Shown here: positions 41,784 through 57,025 of the stretch, one piece after another
Numbering within the stretch: the first letter of the stretch is position 1
Layout of the letters: the number at the start of each line of letters is the position of its first letter
Assembly: GCF_033842475.1 (NCBI RefSeq)
Contig: NZ_JAWXYB010000018.1
Span: 248,001 to 312,000 of the forward strand
Direction: 5' to 3'
DNA: 64,000 nt
Origin: Acidiphilium acidophilum
Lineage (GTDB): Bacteria; Pseudomonadota; Alphaproteobacteria; Acetobacterales; Acetobacteraceae
Translations under genes and position numbers: made by a program
The notes under the pieces: generated by a model
The model's database searches: none
Told to the model about the DNA's origin: nothing
Seen by the model: only the letters and a program-made list of their open reading frames with translations

Positions 41784-42997
41784 CAGGGCAATCGCACTTC
41801 AGAATAGTTGTAGGAGGCTGGTGAGGTAGGCATCATCCCATCCGGCCCGTTTGAATTTGCCGCGCAGGGAGCCCCTGGTGGCGTTCTCTTTTTGCATGAC
41901 GTTCAGGGCCATATGTCGCAGGACTGCGAGATTATTTGGGCTATTGCCCAATCTGCTTCGATCCTGATCCTCGTTCATGACGACATCGAGCCTCCAATGG
42001 AGCCGGTTTTCAATGCCCCAATGTGACCGGACAACCTCATTGAAGCGTTCGCTGGAGAGCACAGTGCTGAGCAGGTAGTAGGCGGTCTCAGTCGTGGTTT
42101 TGGTGGAGGTTTCGCGCATACGGACAATTTTGCCGATGGCGGCAAGACCCGGCCATCGGTGTCCCTCCTGCAACCAGGCGATATCGTCTGAAACGGTTGC
42201 GGTGCGGGTCTCGATACGACCATGATCAGCATCGACTGTGCGCGTCGTATTGGTTTCGTCGCACGGCACGCCGTTGAGAAACATGGAGACATCACCATGC
42301 AAGTTGCCTTGGTTCCCCTTCAGCGCGAGAACGTAATCACCTCCTTGATCGACGATTTGTTGCGCGATCGCACGCTGGCAGTTCAACGCATCGGTTGTCA
42401 CGATCGTGCCTTTCAATGATAGCAACTTCAACAGTTTCGGCACTGCGGTGATTTCATTGGATTTGACGTCTGTGGCGATCTGCGCCAGCACGAGACGCTG
42501 TTCGCAACCCCAAGCGCTGACCATATGCAACGCCGATTTGCCGCGGGCATGATCGAAAGATCGACGAAGGACTTTCCCATCGATCGCCACAACACCCTCG
42601 ATCGTCTTGGAAAATCGAGCCATGAACCGCTGAAACGCAGCGCTGAACTGCTCCGGATCGATCTGACGAAATAGCCGGCTGAACGTGTCATGGCTGGGTA
42701 GTCCGTTCTCAAGCTTCAGAAACCCCCGCAGAAACGACTCTTTCGCGCGGGCAAACAGCGCCATGTCGACAGCGCATTGGCCACCGCACAGAACCGTGCA
42801 CAAGGCTATCATCAAAAGCTCATGGAAGTTGTGCAAAGCGGCATTACTGGTCCGCGGATCTTCCAAACCCTGCCAGCACGCAGCAAATTCCTCCAACGTG
42901 TCCTCCCCTGAAGTGTTTCACACGCCGTCGGTAGAATCGCTCCCGCTCAGTCACGCAAGCCCCCCTTATTCTGAAAATTTCAAGTGCGATTCCCCTG
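41784..42997 (-). mobile_element. ISAs1-family insertion sequence with 10-bp target duplication
   Basis: The element is 1214 bp and begins and ends with CAGGG. Outer inverted ends read CAGGG-N-AATCGCACTT on both sides. The 10-bp sequence GGCGTAGGGG is present directly outside each end (41774-41783 and 42998-43007). One intact transposase gene is inside. It interrupts the hybrid histidine kinase gene next to the KaiC-like gene. Confidence 0.94.
41799..42896 (-). CDS. ISAs1-family transposase
   Basis: A 365-residue transposase of the ISAs1 (H-repeat-associated) family. It opens with LEDPRTSNAALHNFHELLMI and MALFARAKESFLRGFLKL, typical of the family N-terminus. Catalytic residues are visible in VVAIDGKVLRRSFDHARGK (Asp), GTIVTTDALNCQRAIAQQI (Asp) and RSHWGIENRLHWRLDVVMNE (Glu). 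The frame is complete, so mobility may be retained. Confidence 0.93.
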   Translation of the reverse strand: MEEFAACWQGLEDPRTSNAALHNFHELLMIALCTVLCGGQCAVDMALFARAKESFLRGFLKLENGLPSHDTFSRLFRQIDPEQFSAAFQRFMARFSKTIEGVVAIDGKVLRRSFDHARGKSALHMVSAWGCEQRLVLAQIATDVKSNEITAVPKLLKLLSLKGTIVTTDALNCQRAIAQQIVDQGGDYVLALKGNQGNLHGDVSMFLNGVPCDETNTTRTVDADHGRIETRTATVSDDIAWLQEGHRWPGLAAIGKIVRMRETSTKTTTETAYYLLSTVLSSERFNEVVRSHWGIENRLHWRLDVVMNEDQDRSRLGNSPNNLAVLRHMALNVMQKENATRGSLRGKFKRAGWDDAYLTSLLQLF

Positions 42998-44041
42998 GGC
43001 GTAGGGGGTATCGAGGTTGACGTTGCCGAGTTCGATGGTGAGCACCCCGCCTTCGGGCATCGCGTCGCGCGCGTTGATCACGAGGTTGAGGATGGCGCTT
43101 TCGAGCTGGTGCGGATCGCAGAGGGTCGGCCAGATATCGTCGGCTTGCGGCAGGTCGACCCGGATGGTGGGGCCGACGGTGCCGGTGATCAGCGTGGTCA
43201 TGGATTCCAGCAGGGCGACCGTGTCGGTCGGTTTCGGGCTGAGGGTCTGGCGGCGCGAGAAGGCGAGCAGGCGGTGGGTGAGGGCGGCGGCGCGGTTGGC
43301 GGCGGTGGCGGCGATGTCGACGTAGCGGCCGAGATCGGCGTAGCGTTCCTGGTCGATCCGCCGGCGCATGAGTTCGAGACTGCCGGTGATACCGGCGAGC
43401 ATGTTGTTGAAGTCGTGGGCGAGGCCGCCGGTGAGCTGGCCGACCGCCTCCATTTTCTGGGCCTGACGGAGGGCGGCTTCGGTCTTCTCGCGTTCGGTGA
43501 TCTGCTGGAGGAGTTCGGCATTGGTGGCTTCGAGCCGGCGGGTGCGGTCCTCCACCAGTTGTTCGAGCCTGACCGCGACCTGGGCGCGGGAGGCGAGGTA
43601 GTGGCGGACTTCGTACTGGCGGCGGCGGGCGCGCAGCGCGGAGGTGGCGGCGCTCGACAAGGTGAGGGCATCGAGCGGGCGTTCGAGCATCGAGGCGTTG
43701 CGAAGGGCGCCGAGGGTGCGGTGACGCCAGATCTGCACTTCCGCGCGGACCTCGCGGCTGGTGAGCACGATGAAGGGAAGATCGGACCAGGGGGGTTGGG
43801 CTTCGACCCACGCGGCGACGGCGTCGGCACCGGCGCCGAACAGGGATTCCTCGGTGACGATCGCCGCACCTGCACCATCTTCGAGCACGCGGATCAGGCA
43901 GGCGGCATCGGCGCAGGATTCGGCGATGACCCCGGCGCGGCCCAGCACATCCGTGATGGCAGCGTTGTCCCGCCCGATCGGGGCGAGGACGGCGATGCGG
44001 GCTTCGAACGGGGTCTCCGGCTGCTTTTCAGGATTCGGCAT
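42998..44041 (-). pseudogene. Hybrid histidine kinase, N-terminal fragment
   Basis: This half begins at ATG 44041, overlapping the end of the KaiC-like gene by 14 bases. About 150 residues of receiver-like or sensory sequence come first (IAVLAPIGRDNAAITDVLGR), then a coiled coil (LVEDRTRRLEATNAELLQQI), the phospho-His box [20 protein letters not shown] and the N box AILNLVINARDAMPEGG. The frame now stops 18 bases into the IS, at 42980. Genes of this type often accompany KaiC-like ATPases in proteobacteria and form their output kinase (established association). Confidence 0.92.
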
Positions 44042-45587
44042 GATCGGCCGGGTGATAGGTGGTCGCGTCGGGCTCGGCCTCATTGAGGAGCGGCTCCGGG
44101 CCGCCGGTATAGACCGGGGTGCCGGAGAGGATGCCGGTAAACTGGGTGAGGGGTGCGCCGATCACGATGCCCTGCGCGGTGAGGCGGAATTCGCGGATGG
44201 TGTGTTCGTGGGGACCGCTGCGTTTTTTCACGACCGAGAGGGCGCGGCGGATGGTGCCGGCGACTTCGAAGTAGCGGAGCAGGACGACGGAATCGCTGAG
44301 ATAGCTGATGTCGAGCGGGGTTTCCGTGGTGCCGACCAGCCCGTGCTGGGCGAGGATCATGATGGTGAGAACGCCGAGCTGGCTCATGTAGCTGAGCAGT
44401 TCGTGCATCTGCAGGACGAGGAACCTGCCGTCTGGCATGGCGTTGAGGTAGCCGTTCAGACTGTCGATCACGACGATGCGGGCGTGCCCGACTTCGACCT
44501 CGTGGCGGACCTGCTGGGCGAATTCGCCCGGGGAGAGTTCGGCGGGATCGACCTGGCGGATATGGACCAGGCCGGCCTCGATCGCGGTGGTGAGGTCCAT
44601 GCCGAGGGCTTTGGCGCGGGCGCGGATGGTGCTGGCACCTTCGTCGAACGCGAAGAGTACCGAGTGTTCGCCGCGTTCCGCCGCTTCCATGACGTAGGTG
44701 AGGGCGAGGGAGGATTTGCCGACGCCGGCGGCGCCGATCAGCAGGGTGTTGGTGCCGCGTTCGAGGCCGCCGCCGAGCAGGCGGTCGAGATCGGGGTTGC
44801 CGCTTTCGGTGAAGCTGTTGTCGAAATCGCGGTGGTGTTCGGCGGCGATGAGGCGCGGGTAGATGGCGAGGCCGCCGGTTTCGATGGTGAAATCGTGGAA
44901 GCCGCCGCGGAATTTGATGCCGCGCATTTTTATGACGCGCAGGCGGCGGCGCTCGGCCCCGTAATCGATGGCGAGTTGTTCGAGCAGGACGACGCCGTGG
45001 GAGATCGAATGGACCTGGAGGTCGTTCTGGGAGGAGGAGAGGTCATCGAGCAGGATGACGGTGCAGCTGCGGCCGGCGAAGAAATGTTTCAGGCCGAGGA
45101 TCTGGCGGCGGTAGCGCAGCGGGCTCTGGGCGAGGAGGCGCATTTCGGAGAGGCTGTCGAACACCACCCGGGTGGGGTTGGTTTCGGTCACGCGGTCGAA
45201 CACCATTTTGGTGGTTTCGTTCAGCTCCATTTCCGCCGGGTGCAGGACGGTCAGTTCGCGTCCGGGATCGAGCAGGCTTTCGGGGGCGGAGAGTTCGAAA
45301 ACGTCGATCCCTTCGAGGGACCAGCCGTGGCGCTCGGCGACGCCGAAGAGTTCGACGCGGGTTTCCGAGAGGGTGACGTAGAGGGTGCGTTCGCCGTGGC
45401 GGACTCCTTCGAGCAGGAATTGCAGGGCGAGGGTGGTTTTGCCGGTGCCGGGGCGGCCTTCGTAGAGATAGACCCGATCGGCATCGAGGCCGCCGCCGAG
45501 AATATCGTCGAGCCCCTCGCTGCCGGTGGAGATGCGTGGGTTCATCTGGCCGGGGGCTGCTTGGTGGGCCGATCGTCGGTCATTCAT
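44028..45587 (-). CDS. KaiC-like double-domain RecA-superfamily ATPase
   Basis: A 519-residue protein with two KaiC/RadA-type ATPase domains. Domain 1 has Walker A YEGRPGTGKTTLALQFL at about residue 42 and VVFDSLSEMRLLA. Domain 2 has Walker A LIGAAGVGKSSLALTYV near 280 and Walker B RIVVIDSLNGYLNAMPDG. Each domain has the paired catalytic-acid segment (YVTLSETRVELFG and LFAFDEGASTIRARA). It is the size of cyanobacterial KaiC, but no kaiA or kaiB is adjacent. In proteobacteria such KaiC homologues pair with a hybrid histidine kinase; that partner is here the IS-disrupted gene overlapping its 3' end. Stress or light signalling is possible, not shown. Confidence 0.9.
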   Translation of the reverse strand: MNDRRSAHQAAPGQMNPRISTGSEGLDDILGGGLDADRVYLYEGRPGTGKTTLALQFLLEGVRHGERTLYVTLSETRVELFGVAERHGWSLEGIDVFELSAPESLLDPGRELTVLHPAEMELNETTKMVFDRVTETNPTRVVFDSLSEMRLLAQSPLRYRRQILGLKHFFAGRSCTVILLDDLSSSQNDLQVHSISHGVVLLEQLAIDYGAERRRLRVIKMRGIKFRGGFHDFTIETGGLAIYPRLIAAEHHRDFDNSFTESGNPDLDRLLGGGLERGTNTLLIGAAGVGKSSLALTYVMEAAERGEHSVLFAFDEGASTIRARAKALGMDLTTAIEAGLVHIRQVDPAELSPGEFAQQVRHEVEVGHARIVVIDSLNGYLNAMPDGRFLVLQMHELLSYMSQLGVLTIMILAQHGLVGTTETPLDISYLSDSVVLLRYFEVAGTIRRALSVVKKRSGPHEHTIREFRLTAQGIVIGAPLTQFTGILSGTPVYTGGPEPLLNEAEPDATTYHPADHAES

Positions 45588-45820: not shown

Positions 45821-47189
45821 CTCAGGACTCCCCTCATTCCTATATCGTACCGAAGGTTCCATTGAAAACTGACTGTTGAGCGAGGTTTTGGGCGAAGTTT
45901 TCGATCAATGGGCGGAGACGATGCTCTGGCATATTGGGGATGAGCTCGTAGAGCATGCATCCTTGCCGAAAGAGCGAGTGGGTCCGCCGCTTTGAGGTAT
46001 TGGATTTGAGGTGCCTGTCATAGCCAAGTTCTTCTCCGGTGGCACCGAGCAGAGTGAGCAGGGCGACAGCGAAGGCATTGAGCAGCCACAGGCGATCGCG
46101 CCGCTCCGGGGTGCTGACGTGGAGGGCGCCCATCCCCATGCCGAAGCGCAAATTTTTGGTGTCGCGGAAACCCGGTTCAATGGTCCAGCGTTTCGCGTAG
46201 AGATTGATCAGTTGGCGCGCGGTATCATCGGTGGTGCTCGCGGCCACGCACCACGGTTCCTTCATACCTTTGTCCCGCACGCAAACCACCGTGCCGACGG
46301 TGAACCGTTCCGCGGTGACGGCGGCTGCGCGGAGTGTTCTGGCGCGTCCGGCGGCCATCACCCACTCAGCGGCTGGTCTGGCCTCGCCGCTCGCCGCGGT
46401 GACCAGGATATTGCCGCGAAAGCGGATCACGTAGTCGAACTTCAACTCCTCCGTCAGCACCCGGTAGAGCTTATGATCGCCGAACCCACGATCGGCGACG
46501 ATGCAGACGCTTGTTTCGGCCGGCACGATTTCCGCCAGCGCGACCAGCAAGCGGTATTCCTCTTCATTGCGCCGGTTCTTCAGATTGGCCTTATCAACCG
46601 TATGCCAGATCAGCGGCGTCGCGCGACCGTGCGAACTCAGCAGCGAGAGCATCAGCGTCGCCTGCCCATCGGCGTCGAATTCGGTCCAATCCATCGCGAC
46701 AACGATACGCTCACGCGTCCCGATCACGAACGATACCCACCGCCGCAGCACGACGTCCAGATCAATCCCGGGGTTCGAGAGCATGCGATCGACCTGCTTG
46801 ATCGCATGCTTGGTCAGTCGCCCACGTGCCAGAGCCAGCCCCTGGCCAATCGCGCCAATCGCCAGCGATGCGGTCTCGATGACCCCCAGTGTTGCTCCTG
46901 CCAGGGACAGGATCCGCTTGGCATGCAGGTCCTCCCCCAGCAAACCTTCCAGAAAGCGCTGAACATCGTCAAACGACATGGGTCTCCTCCTGGCAGCCAT
47001 CCGATCCTCCAGAAACCAGACTGATTGCCGGGCAACCTTGGAATCGTGCACCGAGGAACAAGGGCAGCCAGAAAATTCGAACGAAAAGAACCTGGATCAA
47101 CCGATCCCGATTCCTTCCGAAAATCCAACCCGGCCCTCTCGATTCTCTTTAAACGATAGTTGCGAATTCAATATGAGGGGATGAATGAG
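45821..47189 (-). mobile_element. IS4-family insertion sequence (copy C), 9-bp target duplication
   Basis: The element is 1369 bp. Its ends are imperfect inverted repeats of the form CTCA-N3-NTCCCCTCAT, and the 9-bp GATTGGAGG is repeated directly outside (45812-45820 and 47190-47198). It lies between the KaiC-like gene and the small membrane gene at 47260, in what would have been a divergent intergenic region. Its ends resemble those of copies A and B below, but its transposase differs. Confidence 0.93.
45840..46979 (-). CDS. IS4-family transposase (copy C)
   Basis: From ATG 46979, chosen because CAGGAGGAGACCC precedes it, the product is 379 residues; an ATG at 47051 is possible. The DDE residues of IS4-type enzymes appear in VVAMDWTEFDADGQATLML, CIVADRGFGDHKLYRVLTEE and the YREK-like LYAKRWTIEPGFRDTKNLRF. 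Related to, but clearly different from, the transposase of copies A and B (for example GMGMGALHVSTPERRDRLWL against GMGMAEIRIAEPERRDRLLL). Confidence 0.93.
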   Translation of the reverse strand: MSFDDVQRFLEGLLGEDLHAKRILSLAGATLGVIETASLAIGAIGQGLALARGRLTKHAIKQVDRMLSNPGIDLDVVLRRWVSFVIGTRERIVVAMDWTEFDADGQATLMLSLLSSHGRATPLIWHTVDKANLKNRRNEEEYRLLVALAEIVPAETSVCIVADRGFGDHKLYRVLTEELKFDYVIRFRGNILVTAASGEARPAAEWVMAAGRARTLRAAAVTAERFTVGTVVCVRDKGMKEPWCVAASTTDDTARQLINLYAKRWTIEPGFRDTKNLRFGMGMGALHVSTPERRDRLWLLNAFAVALLTLLGATGEELGYDRHLKSNTSKRRTHSLFRQGCMLYELIPNMPEHRLRPLIENFAQNLAQQSVFNGTFGTI

Positions 47190-48562: not shown

Positions 48563-48966
48563 ATTGCCTCGCCTCGCCTTTCTGCGGGAGGCAGGTGGAT
48601 GGGTTTTGGGGTTGTGATCGATGGGCTTCGCAAGGGCTCTGCCCATCCTACGGTTTGCTGGATTCGCGCGGACCTCGGGGGGCCGCGCGCGCCCTTCAGC
48701 ATGGACGAGACGATTCCGCAATTGGTGGAAACGCTGCTGGCGCAACAGGGGGTGCCGGGGTTGCGCTTCATCGACCGGCATGGGGTGACGGTGGCGTGGT
48801 GATGGGTGGATTATGGCTGTTCCTATTGTTTCGGCAGAGGGTGATGGGGGGAAGGGCTAGCTGTCTTTGAGATAGAATATGAAGTAAGAAGACATTGCGG
48901 AGCGTCCAAAATCTACGTCACAATGCAGTGCTTCAAAGGGGGTCGGACGGCCGTCGCGTAGAACCT

Positions 48967-48996
48967 TTGCCCCAATTGAACTTTCACCTCTATAAT
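48967..48996 (+). promoter_or_regulatory. Possible sigma70-type promoter of the dioxygenase/HEPN pair
   Basis: TTGCCC (48967-48972) and a perfect TATAAT (48991-48996) are 18 bases apart just before the dioxygenase frame. If used, transcription would start near 49003, which would make ATG 49037 (after GAAGAG) the real start rather than ATG 48995, which overlaps the TATAAT. Confidence 0.35.
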
Positions 48997-49075
48997 GACG
49001 CCGAGGGGGCTCAGCTTGCGCAGCATTCGCGAAGAGATGAATGAAAAGGGATGGGCAAAGCTACCCAGTTGGGAC
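48995..49075 (+). pseudogene. TauD-like Fe(II)/2-oxoglutarate dioxygenase, fragment 1 (N-terminus)
   Basis: Fragments 48995-49075, 50368-50862 and 52155-52256 join into a single 225-codon frame when IS copies A and B and one copy of each 9-bp duplication are removed. This first part gives 27 residues (LRSIREEMNEKGWAKLPSWD at its end). An in-frame stop at 48977-48979 limits the start to ATG 48995 or ATG 49037. The reconstructed protein has the 2-oxoglutarate oxygenase set: His79 and Asp81 in PPHTDGAHLVSPPRYIALRC, His203 in ILIDNWRTLHARGSG, and Arg215 and Arg219 twelve and sixteen residues later, where TauD-type enzymes hold 2-oxoglutarate. Its substrate cannot be inferred. Confidence 0.85.
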
Positions 49076-50358
49076 CTCACTCATCCCCTCATTACGTAGC
49101 CGGCATGGAATTGCCGAATATGCCGCTGCTGCGCAGCATTTCCGTGAACCGCCGCATCAGGGGCAGTAGCCGGTGCTTCGGCATGTTCGGGATCAATTCA
49201 TAGAGCATGCACCCCTGACGGAACAACGAGTGTGAGCGGGTCTTCGAAGTGTTGGACTTGAGCTGTCGATCCATTCCCAGGCTCTCGCCTGCCGTCCCGA
49301 GCATGGTCAGCAGCGCCATCGCAAACGCGCTGATGAGCAGCAGCCGATCGCGCCGCTCTGGTTCGGCGATGCGGATCTCAGCCATCCCCATCCCAAAACG
49401 CAAATCCTTGACGTCCCTGAAGCTGGGTTCGATCGTCCAGCGCCGGGAATATTGCTTGATCAATGTCCCTGCAGACGCCACGGCGTCACTGCTCGCCAGG
49501 CACCACGGCTCCTTCATGTCACGCGCATGTACGCACACCACGGCACCGACCTGATAGGCGTGCGAGGCGGTGACGCGCGCACCACGCAGTTTGCGCGCCC
49601 GGCCCGATTTGCCGACCCAGTCCGCCGCGGTTCGCGTCTCGCCTGCGGCATCGGTGACATGGATGTTGCCGCGGAAGCGAATGATATAGGCAAAGCCAAG
49701 CTCCGTAAGATACGCGAACAGCTTGTGGTCACCGAAGCCGCGGTCGGCCAGGATGGTCACGCGGCAGCCGGGCGGGACAACCTCCGACAGGCGGCGCAGG
49801 CAAGTATCCTCGATGGCGTTGCGCTGATCTTTCAATTCCTCTTTCCACATCGACAGCCACAACAGAGGCATCGCCCGGCCATGCTTGCTCACCAGGTTGA
49901 GCGCCAACGTTGCCTGATCGTCGCCGTCGAAATCCGTCCAGTCCATGGCAACGACGATGTCGGTCTGCGAACCCACCAGATGCGGTACCCAACGGGCGAA
50001 GCTTTCCCAGACGTCGATACTCTCGTTACTGAGCATGCGATCAACCTGCTTGATCGCGTGCTTGGTCACCAGCCCGCGCGCCTGTGCCAACGCCTGACCG
50101 ATCATCGCGACGGCGAGCGACGCGCCGGTCATCACGCCCAGTGTCGCAGCAGACAGGGAGTCAACGCGTTTGGCGTGGAGATCGTGGGCATACAACTCGT
50201 CAATGAATGCGCGGATGTCCTTCAACCGCCCACCATCACGCTTTTTCGATGCTGCAATTCCCATGATCCACCCTCATCCATGCATTCCAACGCTTGGTAG
50301 AGAATCGCAGCGAATCGGCGCAATACCTGGACCTATGGAAAATGGGGGGATTCCTGAG
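49076..50358 (-). mobile_element. IS4-family insertion sequence (copy A), 9-bp target duplication
   Basis: The element is 1283 bp. End sequences are CTCACTCATCCCCTCATT at the left and the complement of CTCAGGAATCCCCCCATT at the right. AGTTGGGAC is repeated directly outside (49067-49075 and 50359-50367). It appears identical in length and protein to copy B, which lies inverted 504 bases away. It interrupts the dioxygenase gene after codon 27. Confidence 0.95.
49092..50264 (-). CDS. IS4-family transposase (copy A)
   Basis: A 390-residue transposase with the IS4 catalytic residues in VVAMDWTDFDGDDQATLALN (Asp), VTILADRGFGDHKLFAYLTE (Asp) and YSRRWTIEPSFRDVKDLRFG (Glu, YREK-like). The start ATG follows GAGGGTGGATC on the minus strand. 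The protein is identical to that of copy B. The frame is intact. Confidence 0.94.
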   Translation of the reverse strand: MGIAASKKRDGGRLKDIRAFIDELYAHDLHAKRVDSLSAATLGVMTGASLAVAMIGQALAQARGLVTKHAIKQVDRMLSNESIDVWESFARWVPHLVGSQTDIVVAMDWTDFDGDDQATLALNLVSKHGRAMPLLWLSMWKEELKDQRNAIEDTCLRRLSEVVPPGCRVTILADRGFGDHKLFAYLTELGFAYIIRFRGNIHVTDAAGETRTAADWVGKSGRARKLRGARVTASHAYQVGAVVCVHARDMKEPWCLASSDAVASAGTLIKQYSRRWTIEPSFRDVKDLRFGMGMAEIRIAEPERRDRLLLISAFAMALLTMLGTAGESLGMDRQLKSNTSKTRSHSLFRQGCMLYELIPNMPKHRLLPLMRRFTEMLRSSGIFGNSMPAT

Positions 50359-50862
50359 AGTTGGGACGGCATATCCACAATGGTGCTTAACGAGCGTCAT
50401 CGCGATCTGTTGGGCACCGATTCGTTGCGTCCAGCACGATATTTTTTGCGACCAAAAAGCAGGGCAGACGCTAAACGTGGCACAATGTCTTCGGTAACGG
50501 GGCTTGGTCCCCAGCCACCTCACACAGACGGAGCTCACCTTGTATCGCCGCCGCGCTACATCGCACTTCGATGTGACGCAATCGGTGCCGAACCCTGCCC
50601 GACAGTTTTGTGGAGCCTAGATAAAAAGGCTTTGACGCTCTCACCACCAAAATTGCTTCTGCAACCGGGATGGGTTGTCCGCCGCTCTGCAAGCATGAAA
50701 TTCTACAGTCAGGTTCTTGAATTCATGCATGCTGGACTCTTTCGGATAAGGTTTGATCCGATTTGTATGTCATTACCGAGCATACCCAACGCAATTGGCG
50801 AAGTGGGGCAATCGCTTATCGCGAATTCAATTGAATCGCGGTATGAGTGGTCCGTTGGGGAT
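50359..50862 (+). pseudogene. TauD-like dioxygenase, fragment 2 (core with HxD motif)
   Basis: This segment, between the two inverted IS copies, encodes residues 25-192 of the restored protein, including His79-x-Asp81. It reads continuously in one frame from the duplicated SWD codons at 50359 to the duplicated VGD codons at 50854-50862. It is visibly richer in A+T than the surrounding chromosome, a sign of transfer. It has no start or stop of its own. Confidence 0.85.
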
Positions 50863-52145
50863 CTCAGGAATCCCCCCATTTTCCATAGGTCCAGGTATTG
50901 CGCCGATTCGCTGCGATTCTCTACCAAGCGTTGGAATGCATGGATGAGGGTGGATCATGGGAATTGCAGCATCGAAAAAGCGTGATGGTGGGCGGTTGAA
51001 GGACATCCGCGCATTCATTGACGAGTTGTATGCCCACGATCTCCACGCCAAACGCGTTGACTCCCTGTCTGCTGCGACACTGGGCGTGATGACCGGCGCG
51101 TCGCTCGCCGTCGCGATGATCGGTCAGGCGTTGGCACAGGCGCGCGGGCTGGTGACCAAGCACGCGATCAAGCAGGTTGATCGCATGCTCAGTAACGAGA
51201 GTATCGACGTCTGGGAAAGCTTCGCCCGTTGGGTACCGCATCTGGTGGGTTCGCAGACCGACATCGTCGTTGCCATGGACTGGACGGATTTCGACGGCGA
51301 CGATCAGGCAACGTTGGCGCTCAACCTGGTGAGCAAGCATGGCCGGGCGATGCCTCTGTTGTGGCTGTCGATGTGGAAAGAGGAATTGAAAGATCAGCGC
51401 AACGCCATCGAGGATACTTGCCTGCGCCGCCTGTCGGAGGTTGTCCCGCCCGGCTGCCGCGTGACCATCCTGGCCGACCGCGGCTTCGGTGACCACAAGC
51501 TGTTCGCGTATCTTACGGAGCTTGGCTTTGCCTATATCATTCGCTTCCGCGGCAACATCCATGTCACCGATGCCGCAGGCGAGACGCGAACCGCGGCGGA
51601 CTGGGTCGGCAAATCGGGCCGGGCGCGCAAACTGCGTGGTGCGCGCGTCACCGCCTCGCACGCCTATCAGGTCGGTGCCGTGGTGTGCGTACATGCGCGT
51701 GACATGAAGGAGCCGTGGTGCCTGGCGAGCAGTGACGCCGTGGCGTCTGCAGGGACATTGATCAAGCAATATTCCCGGCGCTGGACGATCGAACCCAGCT
51801 TCAGGGACGTCAAGGATTTGCGTTTTGGGATGGGGATGGCTGAGATCCGCATCGCCGAACCAGAGCGGCGCGATCGGCTGCTGCTCATCAGCGCGTTTGC
51901 GATGGCGCTGCTGACCATGCTCGGGACGGCAGGCGAGAGCCTGGGAATGGATCGACAGCTCAAGTCCAACACTTCGAAGACCCGCTCACACTCGTTGTTC
52001 CGTCAGGGGTGCATGCTCTATGAATTGATCCCGAACATGCCGAAGCACCGGCTACTGCCCCTGATGCGGCGGTTCACGGAAATGCTGCGCAGCAGCGGCA
52101 TATTCGGCAATTCCATGCCGGCTACGTAATGAGGGGATGAGTGAG
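50863..52145 (+). mobile_element. IS4-family insertion sequence (copy B), 9-bp target duplication
   Basis: The element is 1283 bp, inverted relative to copy A. GTTGGGGAT is repeated directly outside (50854-50862 and 52146-52154). Because copies A and B each have their own duplication, they are two separate insertions and not the ends of one composite transposon. It interrupts the dioxygenase gene after codon 192, just before the distal iron-binding His. Confidence 0.95.
50957..52129 (+). CDS. IS4-family transposase (copy B)
   Basis: A 390-residue transposase with the same residues as copy A throughout, so the duplication is recent. Intact catalytic triad as described for copy A. The stop lies 16 bases before the right end of the element. 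Confidence 0.94.
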   Translation: MGIAASKKRDGGRLKDIRAFIDELYAHDLHAKRVDSLSAATLGVMTGASLAVAMIGQALAQARGLVTKHAIKQVDRMLSNESIDVWESFARWVPHLVGSQTDIVVAMDWTDFDGDDQATLALNLVSKHGRAMPLLWLSMWKEELKDQRNAIEDTCLRRLSEVVPPGCRVTILADRGFGDHKLFAYLTELGFAYIIRFRGNIHVTDAAGETRTAADWVGKSGRARKLRGARVTASHAYQVGAVVCVHARDMKEPWCLASSDAVASAGTLIKQYSRRWTIEPSFRDVKDLRFGMGMAEIRIAEPERRDRLLLISAFAMALLTMLGTAGESLGMDRQLKSNTSKTRSHSLFRQGCMLYELIPNMPKHRLLPLMRRFTEMLRSSGIFGNSMPAT

Positions 52146-52256
52146 GTTGGGGATACAATTTTGATCGATAACTGGCGCACACTTCACGCGCGTGGCTCCG
52201 GTGCCGGGGGGGCTTTACTACGTCAATTATCACGCTGGACTTCGGGAGATTTATAA
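52146..52256 (+). pseudogene. TauD-like dioxygenase, fragment 3 (C-terminus)
   Basis: The last 33 codons supply His203 and the 2-oxoglutarate-binding arginines (ILIDNWRTLHARGSG, then GGALLRQLSRWTSGDL). The TAA at 52254-52256 overlaps the ATG of the next gene by one base (TAATG). The exact end-to-start fit shows that this was a coupled two-gene operon before the insertions. Confidence 0.85.
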
Positions 52257-53212
52257 TGGATTGGAGCGCTGACACTCTTAAGGCCAAGGCGAAGCTATAT
52301 GGTCAGCGCGCCCACGAGCAGCAGATCGAATCAGCTCAGTTCGGGTTTTGGATGAGTTTATGCCTTGAATTACTGGCGCGAGCAGCCCTCGCTAAGCTCC
52401 ACCCTGTTCTCTTGGCCGACCCCCGCGATGAAGGCAACATCCATTATTCTTTTGGCATAATTCCAAAAGGAAATGTTCGGTCGGTTCAGGCTAAAACTGT
52501 ATTTGCCCGATGTTCAATATTTGTCCCCGGATATACGGATAAGATGTCGGCGCATTGTCTCATTCTCGCAGATCGGCGAAATCGCGAACTACATACGGGT
52601 GTGGCGGCTTTCGAAGGCCATGATGCCTCGACTTGGCTACCGCAGACATACGGAGTCATGGAGGTACTCCTAAAATACCTCGACGACGATTTTACTGGTC
52701 TGTTTGGAAATGAACAGGCGCGCGTCGCGCAAATGATGCTGAAAGATCGACGCAGCCAGACAAAGTCGGAAGTTCAGTCGAAGATTGCGGCGGCACGTAA
52801 AGCTTTTGAAACCCTTAACGGGCAAGAAAAAAGCGAACGAGCATCTAAGGCTCAGGAAATGCTGGTTTCGTGGGTGGCCAAAAGTGCTCTGCGTAAGGCA
52901 ACTAAATGTCCGTCTTGCGGGTTTAACGCGGCTCTGTCAGGCGAGTCGCAAAATCGCGGGCCTGTCCAGATCGACGAGGCGGCTGCGACGATTACACGTG
53001 AAGTTCGAGTGCTTCCACACGCCCTTACGTGTCCGACCTGCGGGTTAAAATTGGATGGTTATCAAGAGCTGTTGGAAGCAAATCTTGGTCAGATTTTTAC
53101 TACTGTAGAAGAGGAGGATCCAATCGAGTTTTTTGGCATAGTGCCTGAAGAACACGTTGATGTAGATGCTCTCGTTCGTCGGTATCACGAGGACGAATAC
53201 AACAACGAGTGA
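52256..53212 (+). CDS. Predicted HEPN-like protein with zinc ribbons, partner of the dioxygenase
   Basis: A 318-residue protein that I do not recognise as a named family. Residues about 1-150 are mostly helical (FGFWMSLCLELLARAALAKL near 30-49) and contain LADRRNRELHTG with Arg108 and His113, the R-x4-H signature of HEPN ribonuclease-type domains. A charged helix follows (about 155-210). Two CxxC knuckles, Cys218/Cys221 (KCPSCGFN) and Cys259/Cys262 (CPTCGLKL), can form a zinc ribbon. An acidic tail ends the protein. Composition is A+T-rich compared with neighbours, suggesting transfer. The start overlaps the dioxygenase stop, so the pair is coupled. RNA cleavage or binding in a defence or stress module is inference. 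Confidence 0.72.
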   Translation: MDWSADTLKAKAKLYGQRAHEQQIESAQFGFWMSLCLELLARAALAKLHPVLLADPRDEGNIHYSFGIIPKGNVRSVQAKTVFARCSIFVPGYTDKMSAHCLILADRRNRELHTGVAAFEGHDASTWLPQTYGVMEVLLKYLDDDFTGLFGNEQARVAQMMLKDRRSQTKSEVQSKIAAARKAFETLNGQEKSERASKAQEMLVSWVAKSALRKATKCPSCGFNAALSGESQNRGPVQIDEAAATITREVRVLPHALTCPTCGLKLDGYQELLEANLGQIFTTVEEEDPIEFFGIVPEEHVDVDALVRRYHEDEYNNE

Positions 53213-53294
53213 AATTGGATAGACATACATTGAGGTCACATTGAAGAAGCCTACCACCGTCGGCTGTGATCGCTCCGCTGCCCTCGCAATATGC

Positions 53295-53726
53295 TCAGGG
53301 CAAGCGGGCGAACGGGTCGTGCACGGGTATTCCCAATGGGGCGAAGTGCCGCAGGTTGCGGGTCAGGATCGTCATTCCGTGGTGTTGTGCGGTGGCGGCG
53401 ATGATGATGTCGGCGAAGCCTGGGGCGTGTCCCTGGGCTCGGGCTTGGTCTGATAGATGACCGGCGAGGCGGGCGGTTGGGAGGTCGAACGGGAGGATGC
53501 GGGGCGCGTAGAGGTGGAGTGTGGTTTCGAGCCAGGCGGCGAGGTTGATTGCTTTGCGGGTTGCTCCCTCGCGTTTGGCTTTGGCGATGCCATTCTCGAT
53601 TTCGGCGATCGTGACGGTGGAGAGGAACAAGTCGGCTGAGTGGGCGTGCATCCAGGTGGTCAGTTCGGGCAGGGGAACGCGTGAGGGCGCGGGGGCCGAG
53701 ATGACGTTGGTGTCGACGAGGTACAA
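53295..53726 (-). CDS. VapC-type PIN-domain toxin
   Basis: A 143-residue PIN-domain ribonuclease. The four acidic positions are visible: Asp5 in YLVDTNVISAP, Glu in TVTIAEIENGIAKA, Asp in GHAPGFADIIIAATAQHH, and the closing LTRNLRHFAPLGIPVHDPF. PIN toxins cut RNA, often initiator tRNA or rRNA, when freed of antitoxin. The antitoxin gene lies immediately upstream with a three-base gap, giving a standard pair. Confidence 0.9.
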   Translation of the reverse strand: MYLVDTNVISAPAPSRVPLPELTTWMHAHSADLFLSTVTIAEIENGIAKAKREGATRKAINLAAWLETTLHLYAPRILPFDLPTARLAGHLSDQARAQGHAPGFADIIIAATAQHHGMTILTRNLRHFAPLGIPVHDPFARLP

Positions 53727-53729
53727 TGA

Positions 53730-53972
53730 TCAGAGGCCGCTATCACGGGGTGGGGTGGTGTTGCGGGGTGGGAGATCGGCTTCGTCGAGAGGTGCTGCCA
53801 TCAGCAATTGGCCGAAGGAGGGTACGTGCGAGAGACGTTGCCATTCCGCGAAGCTTAATAGTACGGCCTCGGGTTTGCCGTGGCGGGTGATGATGGCGGG
53901 TTCGCCGCGTACTGCATCGTCCACCATGGCGGACAGGCTGGCCTTGGCGTCGCGAAGCTGGATTTCCCGCAT
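53730..53972 (-). CDS. Phd/YefM-type antitoxin
   Basis: An 80-residue antitoxin from ATG 53972 (a start at 54008 adds 12 residues). It has the Phd/YefM fold signature MREIQLRDAKASLSAMVDDA followed by EPAIITRHGKPEAVLLSFAEW. The C-terminal PLDEADLPPRN segment would wrap the toxin. It is the first gene of the pair and is expected to repress its own promoter. Confidence 0.88.
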   Translation of the reverse strand: MREIQLRDAKASLSAMVDDAVRGEPAIITRHGKPEAVLLSFAEWQRLSHVPSFGQLLMAAPLDEADLPPRNTTPPRDSGL

Positions 53973-54204
53973 GGCCGACTCCGAACAAGATGAGACTACA
54001 ATGGTCATATTTAGGGCTGTGGGCTGGCGCGGGCAAGGGTGATGTTCGGGGCGGCGGCTCGTTACACGCGCATGGCGGGCGGGGCAGGAGGTTGTTGCAA
54101 GGCCATGTCCGACACCGAACGACGCTCAACATGCGGTCGGTTCGGGCCGATCTGGTTGGACCGAGGCAAGCAAGCTTTCAACAGCACTCGGATTCAAAAG
54201 AGTT

Positions 54205-56132: not shown

Positions 56133-56300
56133 CAGGATTGATTGCGGGGGCGGGGCTGGGCGTCAAGGGAAAAAGATCGGGTGGGGATCACGAGGTTGTC
56201 AGGGGTGGGTTGCGGGGTTCGGGGGGCGGATGACGGTGCGCGGGCGTTGACTGGCGCATTATGACCGGGCATATTTCCGGGTATAGATGTGGAGTGGGTC

Positions 56301-56600
56301 ATGGGGTCGTCGCAGAAGAAGGCTGTTCAGGCGTATCGAAGCCGGCTTGGGGCGCGGGGTCTGGCGCGGTTCGAGGTGGTGGGGTGCGAGGCGGATCGGG
56401 CGTTGATCCGGGCGCTGGCGCGGCGGTTGGCGGAATCGGGGCCGGAGGCGGCGCGGTTGCGGGAAGCGGTCAGTGAGCGGTTGACCGGGGCGGGGGCGGA
56501 AACCGGGGGGATCGTTGCGGCGTTGCGGCGGTCGCCGCTGGTCGGGGCCGATCTGGAGATCGGGCGGGTGCGCGAGGGCGGGCGTGATGTGACGTTCTGA
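56301..56600 (+). CDS. Putative antitoxin partner of the following PIN toxin
   Basis: This 99-residue protein is helical and charged (KKAVQAYRSRLGARGLARFE, then CEADRALIRALARRLAESGP). The C-terminal GADLEIGRVREGGRDVTF looks like a toxin-binding tail. It resembles small antitoxins that precede PIN toxins in Acetobacteraceae, but no DNA-binding fold is certain. ATG 56301 has GGAG six bases upstream. Its TGA overlaps the toxin ATG by one base (TGATG). Confidence 0.7.
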   Translation: MGSSQKKAVQAYRSRLGARGLARFEVVGCEADRALIRALARRLAESGPEAARLREAVSERLTGAGAETGGIVAALRRSPLVGADLEIGRVREGGRDVTF

Positions 56601-57025
56601 TGCGGTATCTGCTCGATACCAATATCATCAGCAATATCACGAGGCCGGTGCCGTCCGACCGGCTGATGGGGTGGATGGCGGCGCGGCATGATGCGGACTT
56701 GTTCATCAGTTCGCTGACGGTTGCGGAGATCAGGCGCGGGGTGCTGGAGATGCCGGAGGGGCGGCGGCGCGATGGGTTGGAGGCGTGGTTCAGTGGGGCG
56801 GAGGGGCCGCAGGCGCTGTTTGCCGGGCGGGTATTGGGGTTCGATGTGGCGGCGGGCTTGATCTGGGCGCGGTTGATGGCCGAGGGCAGGGCGCGGGGGC
56901 ATCCGCGGAGTGCGTTCGACATGATCATCGCAGCGACCGCGCTGGCCAATGATTGCGTGGTGGTGACGGATAATGAGAAGGATTTCGCGGGGATCGAGAT
57001 CGTCAATCCGGTGCGGCGCGGCTGA
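56600..57025 (+). CDS. VapC-type PIN-domain toxin
   Basis: A 141-residue PIN ribonuclease with Asp6 in MRYLLDTNIISNI, Glu in SSLTVAEIRRGVLEM, Asp in SAFDMIIAATALANDCVVVT and the final DNEKDFAGIEIVNPVR. It is translationally coupled to the antitoxin gene. It is only modestly like the PIN toxin at 53295, so the two pairs are not recent duplicates. Confidence 0.9.
   Translation: MRYLLDTNIISNITRPVPSDRLMGWMAARHDADLFISSLTVAEIRRGVLEMPEGRRRDGLEAWFSGAEGPQALFAGRVLGFDVAAGLIWARLMAEGRARGHPRSAFDMIIAATALANDCVVVTDNEKDFAGIEIVNPVRRG

What the first reader, a model, noticed from the sequence alone, without database searches (positions are those of the whole stretch)
48995..52256. A TauD-like dioxygenase gene cut twice by inverted, matching IS4 copies and fully recoverable in silico
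Removing 49076-50358 and 50863-52145 plus one copy of each 9-bp duplication (AGTTGGGAC, GTTGGGGAT) leaves one 225-codon frame. Its stop overlaps the next ATG by one base. The restored protein has His79-x-Asp81, His203, Arg215 and Arg219 in the spacing of Fe(II)/2-oxoglutarate oxygenases, although none of its three pieces would be recognised alone. Two hits in one small gene may mean that its loss was selected.
Basis: partly seen in the sequence, partly recalled or inferred. Interest (0 to 1): 0.85.

Follow-up and report, generated by a model that had tools for sequence, protein, structure and literature searches.

The report
Broken oxygenase–HEPN gene pair
A small oxygenase gene has been cut twice by the same jumping gene, and the gene after it proves to be the steady partner of such oxygenase genes in other bacteria, a probable RNA-cutting protein, so that the pair looks like a toxin-antitoxin or anti-phage unit of a kind I could not find described.

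Summary
Two identical inverted 1,283-bp IS copies, each with its own 9-bp duplication, interrupt one 225-codon frame. The read-through scores as TauD (Pfam 33 bits, cut-off 27). Intact relatives align across both junctions. A 40%-identical intact relative folds as a 2-oxoglutarate oxygenase. The named His/Asp/His/Arg/Arg are kept in 90-94 of 94 relatives.

The larger result lies outside the finding. The gene downstream (52256-53212; no family above cut-off in the libraries tried) is the partner of this oxygenase. In 101 of 104 loci collected by the partner, a TauD-like gene lies directly upstream. The partner has the HEPN marks (Ex3[KR], RN-x3-H, helical fold), also in loci not found by those motifs, plus a four-cysteine zinc ribbon. 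The partner gene is patchy (intact in 5 of 385 same-class genomes, this one included), spans eight phyla by record title plus Streptomyces, and on plasmids often lies beside defence or toxin-antitoxin genes.

I read it as a two-gene toxin-antitoxin or abortive-infection module in which an oxygenase controls a HEPN RNase. The module is well supported; its function is inferred. "Loss was selected" is not supported: this IS inserts in clusters.

The parts
48995..49075 (+). first piece of the oxygenase gene (codons 1-27), ending with the first copy of the 9-bp duplication AGTTGGGAC
49076..50358 (-). first IS copy (1,283 bp); transposase ORF 49092-50264 on the minus strand
   Evidence: family from the identical second copy; 9-bp duplication at 49067-49075 and 50359-50367
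50359..50862 (+). middle piece of the oxygenase gene, with His79-x-Asp81; starts with the second copy of AGTTGGGAC and ends with the first copy of GTTGGGGAT
   Evidence: found by the module's own profile at E 2.3e-25
50863..52145 (+). second IS copy, exact reverse complement of the first; transposase ORF 50957-52129
   Evidence: 9-bp duplication at 50854-50862 and 52146-52154
52146..52256 (+). last piece of the oxygenase gene, with His203, Arg215, Arg219 and stop TAA; starts with the second copy of GTTGGGGAT
   Evidence: weak TauD hit alone
52256..53212 (+). partner gene, 318 aa, intact: HEPN-type helical domain (E38-x3-R42, R108-N109-x3-H113), long helices, C-terminal zinc ribbon (C218, C221, C259, C262)

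Best explanation
48995-53212 is an IS-broken copy of a conserved, horizontally spread two-gene module: a minimal (~220 aa) Fe(II)/2-oxoglutarate oxygenase of the clavaminate-synthase/TauD kind, followed by a ~315 aa protein with a HEPN RNase-type domain and a zinc ribbon. Shown: both gene families, their near-constant neighbourhood, joint divergence, conserved active-site residues on both sides, patchy spread across phyla and plasmids. Inferred: the HEPN protein is an endoRNase toxin or effector that stops growth or phage replication; the oxygenase controls it, most likely as an enzymatic antidote that hydroxylates the HEPN protein or its RNA target, as MNT controls HEPN by AMPylation; the zinc ribbon binds RNA or the trigger. 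In this strain the oxygenase is lost and the HEPN gene, though intact, is probably silent or dependent on read-through from the second IS. My odds: conserved module 0.95; HEPN-type RNase partner 0.8; conflict function (defence or toxin-antitoxin) 0.7; oxygenase as antidote rather than activator or effector 0.4. The confidence below is for the module with a conflict function.
For: Partner-centred collection: 101 of 104 loci (not all distinct; 95 partners non-redundant besides the window's) have a TauD-like ORF directly upstream. Of the 3 misses, one shows the end of a TauD gene cut by the contig edge (L075); L059 and the decayed L047 have none. In 89 of 91 loci counted, the in-frame partner start nearest the TauD stop lies within 20 bp of it; 69 overlap, 54 of them by 4 bases. 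Pairwise identities of the two proteins correlate at r 0.88; 0 of 2000 label shuffles reach it (shared host descent is not controlled). HEPN marks as defined in PMC3710099 (passages read): R108 94/95, N109 95/95, H113 95/95; E38 95/95; residue 42 R or K in 95/95; four Cys 94/95 each. The genome and viral scans searched for two peptide patterns holding these motifs, so the test that counts is: in 16 loci from other searches E38 16, R/K42 16, R108 15, N109 16, H113 16, each Cys 15; in 12 found by the first pattern only, R, N and H 12 of 12; in 38 found by the second only, E38 and R/K42 38 of 38. Model pLDDT 94, with the motif at the end of a long helix. Foldseek's most probable listed hit is sacsin's HEPN domain (prob 0.72), and MtlR, 1wwp, HEPN-MNT 7ae9 and ST0689 are in the top 50. 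Oxygenase: best solved relatives are L-lysine 3-hydroxylase and clavaminate synthase. Spread: intact partner in 5 of 385 class genomes and 7 of 398 phylum genomes, own genome included in both; 52 and 46 plasmid records by two queries, 32 of them conjugative in each; 22 records in each are Agrobacterium. Of 13 annotated plasmid regions that I picked, 9 show defence or toxin-antitoxin genes within 8 kb: Gabija-like pair, ABC-3C + HNH + TrlF, TrlF + VapC (26), R-M and Fic (102), VapBC (100, 101), BrnTA (20); searches are one related lineage.
Against: No activity is shown. The partner's Foldseek matches are weak: none at E 0.001 or better, best HEPN E 0.85 at rank 3 behind two unrelated chains. 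Profile comparison with small DUF4145 (11) and PF05168 (6) sets found no link, and the PDB profile search found no HEPN. PADLOC knows neither protein: no hit for the read-through, only weak scattered ones for 75 partners (best E 0.0037). Four of 13 annotated plasmid regions show no known defence or toxin-antitoxin pair. The neighbour test is only suggestive: 96 PADLOC families hit among 150 neighbour proteins (of 556 eligible) against 28 among 141 control proteins (of 234), but the tool does not count distinct proteins and the controls come from 3 genomes. If the oxygenase were a strict antidote, an intact partner without it (this window; L059; L056, where it is split over two frames) should be harmful. 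Copies with a split partner and an oxygenase ORF present also exist (L027, L193), so decay does not say which is the toxin.
Confidence: 0.65

Rival explanations
1. The oxygenase is the effector or activator. It hydroxylates a free amino acid, aminoacyl group or RNA, and the HEPN/zinc-ribbon protein is the sensor or the RNase that acts only on the modified target. Loss of the oxygenase then simply switches the system off.
For: Nearest solved relatives of the oxygenase are named as amino-acid oxygenases: lysine 3-hydroxylase, arginine and asparagine hydroxylases, and clavaminate synthase. An intact partner without a working oxygenase exists here, in L059, and perhaps in L056. The oxygenase is the more diverged of the two in 927 of 932 closer pairs, as a target-facing part might be.
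Against: The partner keeps a complete RNase-type motif in nearly all members, as a catalytic effector would. Partner-split copies with an oxygenase ORF also persist (L027, L193).
Confidence: 0.3
2. A housekeeping or metabolic operon: the oxygenase modifies a metabolite and the partner is a non-catalytic RNA-binding regulator, as proposed for inactive MtlR-type HEPN proteins (PMC3710099, passage).
For: TauD-superfamily enzymes are mostly metabolic (recalled); MtlR is among the fold matches.
Against: Patchy occurrence with plasmids and IMG/VR contigs; no constant metabolic neighbour: the largest neighbour families occur in 6 of 93 loci; the RNase motif is kept, unlike in inactive MtlR.
Confidence: 0.15
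3. One reading: the double hit reflects selection for loss of the oxygenase in this strain.
For: Two independent insertions 504 bp apart.
Against: Three close pairs of this IS on the contig against 0.32 expected; nearly all copies identical, so a recent general burst; the second hit in an already dead gene is neutral (inference).
Confidence: 0.1

Closest known systems
HEPN-MNT (type VII) toxin-antitoxin modules
   Same: two-gene unit of a HEPN-type protein and an enzyme that could modify it
   Different: the partner enzyme is a 2-oxoglutarate oxygenase, not a nucleotidyltransferase; the HEPN protein carries a zinc ribbon and is longer (318 aa; HEPN chain of 7ae9 is 142); no inhibition shown
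Clavaminate-synthase-like / TauD oxygenases (lysine 3-hydroxylase KDO1, clavaminate synthase, arginine beta-hydroxylase)
   Same: 2OG-oxygenase fold, HxD...H iron site, C-terminal Arg; profile E down to 3.8e-16
   Different: about 220 residues against 273-403 for the solved relatives listed, one of 815 apart; beside the HEPN partner; substrate unknown
DUF4145/HEPN accessory proteins of restriction and abortive-infection systems (PMC3710099 table, passages seen)
   Same: HEPN RNase motif, zinc ribbons in some members, defence-type neighbours
   Different: no detectable profile link here; the paper's main text holds none of the words dioxygenase, oxygenase, 2OG or hydroxylase

Membership tests
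Fe(II)/2OG oxygenase, TauD/clavaminate-synthase-like | HxD...H iron-binding triad | tested here: met
   His79 94/94, Asp81 90/94 (Glu 4), His203 93/94 relatives; present in the read-through
Fe(II)/2OG oxygenase, TauD/clavaminate-synthase-like | 2OG-binding Arg after the distal His | tested here: met
   Arg215 92/94 and Arg219 93/94; which of them binds 2OG is not shown
Fe(II)/2OG oxygenase, TauD/clavaminate-synthase-like | double-stranded beta-helix fold | tested here: met
   on the intact relative L053: pLDDT 95.3, Foldseek E 1e-9 to solved 2OG oxygenases; the window's own read-through was not folded
Fe(II)/2OG oxygenase, TauD/clavaminate-synthase-like | iron and 2OG dependent activity | not testable with these tools
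   needs an enzyme assay
HEPN superfamily | Rx4-6H motif with polar residue after R, at the end of helix 3 | tested here: met
   R108 94/95, N109 95/95, H113 95/95; 15, 16 and 16 of 16 in loci not found by a motif pattern; end of model helix 95-114; criterion read
HEPN superfamily | acidic residue in helix 2, Ex3[KR] | tested here: met
   E38 95/95; R42 80 and K 15 of 95; helix 27-48; 16 of 16 in pattern-free loci and 38 of 38 in loci found by the other motif
HEPN superfamily | fold or profile match to known HEPN domains | tested here: inconclusive
   several HEPN structures among the top 50 Foldseek hits, all weak; no link by hhalign to small DUF4145 and PF05168 sets; PDB profile search negative
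Toxin-antitoxin module | two adjacent genes kept together | tested here: met
   101 of 104 partner loci; 89 of 91 within 20 bp; co-transcription itself inferred
Toxin-antitoxin module | one product toxic, the other neutralises it | not testable with these tools
   needs expression
Anti-phage defence system | match to a catalogued system | tested here: not met
   read-through and partner unknown to PADLOC-DB 2.0.0
Anti-phage defence system | lies in defence islands | tested here: inconclusive
   9 of 13 annotated plasmid regions picked show defence or toxin-antitoxin genes, 4 do not; the count against control regions is only suggestive

The most novel reading that the evidence does not exclude
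A new type of toxin-antitoxin or abortive-infection system in which a 2-oxoglutarate/O2-dependent oxygenase keeps a HEPN-zinc-ribbon RNase in check by hydroxylation. Infection, hypoxia, or loss of iron or 2-oxoglutarate would stop the hydroxylation and release the RNase.
Probability: 0.3. Interest if true: 0.88.

Novelty: new variant of a known kind. Interest (0 to 1): 0.64.

Why it matters
HEPN RNases are common effectors in bacterial conflict systems, but the control enzymes that I found described for them do not include an oxygenase. An oxygenase locked to a HEPN-type protein in about a hundred loci would bring hydroxylation chemistry, and so oxygen, iron and 2-oxoglutarate sensing, into bacterial immunity or toxin control. 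It is directly testable in laboratory E. coli. It also shows that a wreck made by insertion sequences can point to a conserved module that the catalogues used here lack.

Tried and rejected
Target-site preference: both duplications contain GTTGGG on the window's plus strand, but in IS orientation they differ. Of the 21 copies read here (of at least 27), 20 have a 9-bp duplication, all different, with no shared motif by eye; L011 has none.

A third constant gene: clustering 1,030 neighbour ORFs (crude gene calls) from 93 loci gave no family in more than 6 loci, so the module is two genes. TrlF + GIY-YIG recur in one plasmid lineage.

TauD without partner: the TauD profile in 385 class genomes gave hits in 8 at E 1e-15 or better. 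Five, counting the window's own, have the partner; G335 is a remnant cut short of the distal His, without partner; G270 and G403 are other TauD genes of weak score.

Phages and E. coli: no partner in 50,697 phage records; no DNA match of the Cedecea pair in E. coli genomes. PHROGs none for 7 proteins. NCBIfam: nothing near a cut-off for 5 proteins. Of the 7 class genomes, G171 is a short marginal match and G112 a decayed copy. A promoter/terminator scan of 48700-53300 found no more than shuffles give.

First hhalign run used wrongly oriented loci; repeated, still negative.

In print: the terms TauD and HEPN at word starts occur together in 7 held papers, none on such a subject by title; (40 papers, 15 listed) matched inside words, and its one HEPN paper held only an author's name. 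Wider searches: 33 (0 papers), 48 (20 listed of 42), (20 of 412; 25 of 159; 15 of 956; 15 of 18); no listed title or abstract start describes such a pair. Passages searched in PMC3710099, PMC8195603, PMC13092281 and PMC12839542; outline and abstract of PMC11586414. Supplements could not be read and most preprints are not held, so absence from print is not proven.

Rows dropped: L030-L042 as shorter copies of other loci or not kept; L047 from the partner alignment; L091 from A3, A4, the neighbour sample and the tree; L027 and L056 (with L047, L059, L075) from the gap and divergence counts. Of 122 relatives only the best 80 were returned.
Full report
What is there. The two IS copies are 1,283 bp, identical and inverted, each flanked by its own exact 9-bp duplication, so they are two separate insertions and not one composite transposon. 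Left out, the three pieces give one frame of 225 codons whose stop shares a base with the next ATG. The first and middle pieces ring in no Pfam model; the last rings TauD below the cut-off; the joined protein passes it (33 bits against 27). Intact relatives with 37-41% identity align across both cut sites (L053, L054, L055); 54 of 101 relatives do so by a local alignment.

The host. The window is part of a 4.16-Mb genome in 21 contigs. The middle piece finds nothing in the 59 other genomes searched, 11 of the same genus and 24 others of the family.

Is the double hit special? The IS has at least 27 near-full copies, 26 at 100%, so the burst is recent. On the main contig 25 copies include three neighbours closer than 2 kb (504, 571 and 1,482 bp), against 0.32 expected (P 0.004); a gap of 504 bp or less somewhere has probability 0.08 even under uniform insertion. 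A gene hit twice needs no selection. Once the first copy had landed, the second cost nothing.

The partner. Searches with the downstream protein (318 aa) and with the oxygenase brought up largely the same genera of plasmid hosts, and annotated regions show the two genes side by side. In 101 a TauD-like ORF lies directly upstream on the same strand; L075 is cut by the contig edge but shows the end of one; L059 and the decayed L047 have none. The collection was chosen by the partner, so these figures say that the partner almost always has the oxygenase. The reverse was tested in 385 class genomes: of 6 TauD hits at E 1e-24 or better, 5 (with the window's own) have the partner and the sixth is a truncated remnant. 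Taking the in-frame partner start nearest the TauD stop, the genes meet within 20 bp in 89 of 91 loci and overlap in 69. Their divergences run in parallel (r 0.88 over 4,095 pairs; 0 of 2,000 shuffles, which do not control for shared descent), the oxygenase being the more diverged in 927 of 932 closer pairs.

The oxygenase. Its relatives keep His79, Asp81, His203, Arg215 and Arg219 in 94, 90, 93, 92 and 93 of 94 non-redundant sequences; Glu replaces Asp81 in 4. The fold of L053 is confident (pLDDT 95.3, pTM 0.91) and matches solved 2OG oxygenases. By profile the nearest are L-lysine 3-hydroxylase, clavaminate synthase and arginine and asparagine hydroxylases, which act on amino acids or their derivatives (from their names and recall).

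The partner's nature. It has no family above cut-off in Pfam, NCBIfam, PADLOC or PHROGs, only weak scores, mostly zinc ribbons. [quoted passage not shown] The partner meets each: E38-x3-R/K42 and R108-N109-x3-H113, nearly invariant, at the right places in a confident model. One caution: the scans looked for peptide patterns that hold these very motifs, so their conservation there is partly built in. Tested apart from that, 16 loci from other searches keep E38 and R/K42 in 16, R108 in 15, N109 and H113 in 16; the 12 loci found by the first motif alone keep R, N and H in 12; the 38 found by the second alone keep E38 and R/K42 in 38. Six of the 50 listed fold matches are HEPN-type, the highest-probability one being sacsin's HEPN domain; five are named so in the hit titles or in PMC3710099 (3o10, MtlR 6kcr, 1wwp, 7ae9, 1wol), and TT1696 is recalled. 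All are weak (best E 0.85), and profile methods found no link, so I call it HEPN-type, probably an RNase. Two CxxC pairs complete a zinc ribbon.

Spread and setting. The partner is intact in 5 of 385 class genomes and decayed in one more, and present in 7 of 398 phylum genomes; own genome counted in both, and the sets overlap. There are 52 plasmid records by one query and 46 by another, 32 of them conjugative, many being near-copies from Agrobacterium; none in phage records, 7 in IMG/VR contigs. By record title the genome loci fall in eight phyla (Pseudomonadota, Acidobacteriota, Thermodesulfobacteriota, Verrucomicrobiota, Planctomycetota, Gemmatimonadota, Bdellovibrionota, Cyanobacteriota), and Streptomyces plasmids add a ninth. 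In the partner's tree the labels need 12 changes where 7 would be the least, and the window's clade holds two Acidobacteria. The partner is identical in Ketogulonicigenium and Paracoccus halophilus and 98% so in Roseinatronobacter. Of 13 annotated plasmid regions that I picked, 9 show defence or toxin-antitoxin genes: an OLD-type nuclease with UvrD helicase (Gabija-like, name recalled), HNH with an ABC-3C part, TIGR02391 and TrlF, TrlF and VapC, restriction endonuclease, methyltransferase and Fic, VapBC, BrnTA. Four show none. The PADLOC count is only suggestive: 96 families hit in 150 of 556 eligible neighbour proteins, 28 in 141 of 234 control proteins, without a count of distinct proteins.

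How it most likely works. A HEPN RNase-type effector with a zinc ribbon, held or armed by an oxygenase translated just before it. The nearest worked-out parallel is HEPN-MNT, where the second enzyme transfers NMP to the toxin (abstract of PMC11586414). I favour hydroxylation of the partner or its RNA target as the control step, at 0.4; activation or effector roles for the oxygenase come next. In this strain the control gene is gone and the effector gene is whole. That is either a silent toxin or a sign that the partner is harmless alone; RNA-seq would tell.

Novelty. TauD and HEPN occur together in 7 held papers, none on such a subject by title, and the wider searches named in Tried and rejected listed no such pair; supplements and most preprints were out of reach. 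Filed as a new variant of a known kind (HEPN-based two-gene modules), because activity is unproven.

Noticed in passing
G000:C18 297076/298863, 3342664/3344518, 3554542/3557307: The three closest pairs of this IS all have the same arrangement (first copy on the minus strand, second on the plus), and each copy has its own 9-bp duplication. The genes between the other two pairs were not identified.
   Followed up: partly
window 53295-54008: A PIN-domain toxin and Phd/YefM antitoxin pair lies just downstream of the partner gene, on the other strand.
   Followed up: partly
window 56289-57025: A second PIN-domain gene with a small ORF of unknown family before it.
   Followed up: partly
window 45840-47051: A second transposase of the same DDE_Tnp_1 kind, 66% identical in DNA over about 990 bases, so a different IS of the same group.
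   Followed up: partly
window 42980-45587: A double KaiC-type ATPase next to a histidine kinase.
   Followed up: no
L027 8629-9566; L193 7648-8793: On plasmid pRSB223 and a Rhizobium plasmid the partner gene is itself split while an oxygenase ORF is present; described only.
   Followed up: partly
L162 (G335): A lone oxygenase remnant without the distal His and without partner: a decaying module.
   Followed up: partly
L113 8931-11015 and five other loci: Six of 93 loci carry related genes directly after the partner. Two of the 150 neighbour proteins scanned hit HATPase_c_3, possibly members of this group.
   Followed up: partly
L024 7426-8004: On Agrobacterium pAt the oxygenase ORF is present but missing from the plasmid gene table used here.
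   Followed up: yes
L058 2661-4019: The oxygenase ORF is 452 codons, twice the usual length; whether this is a fusion was not examined.
   Followed up: no
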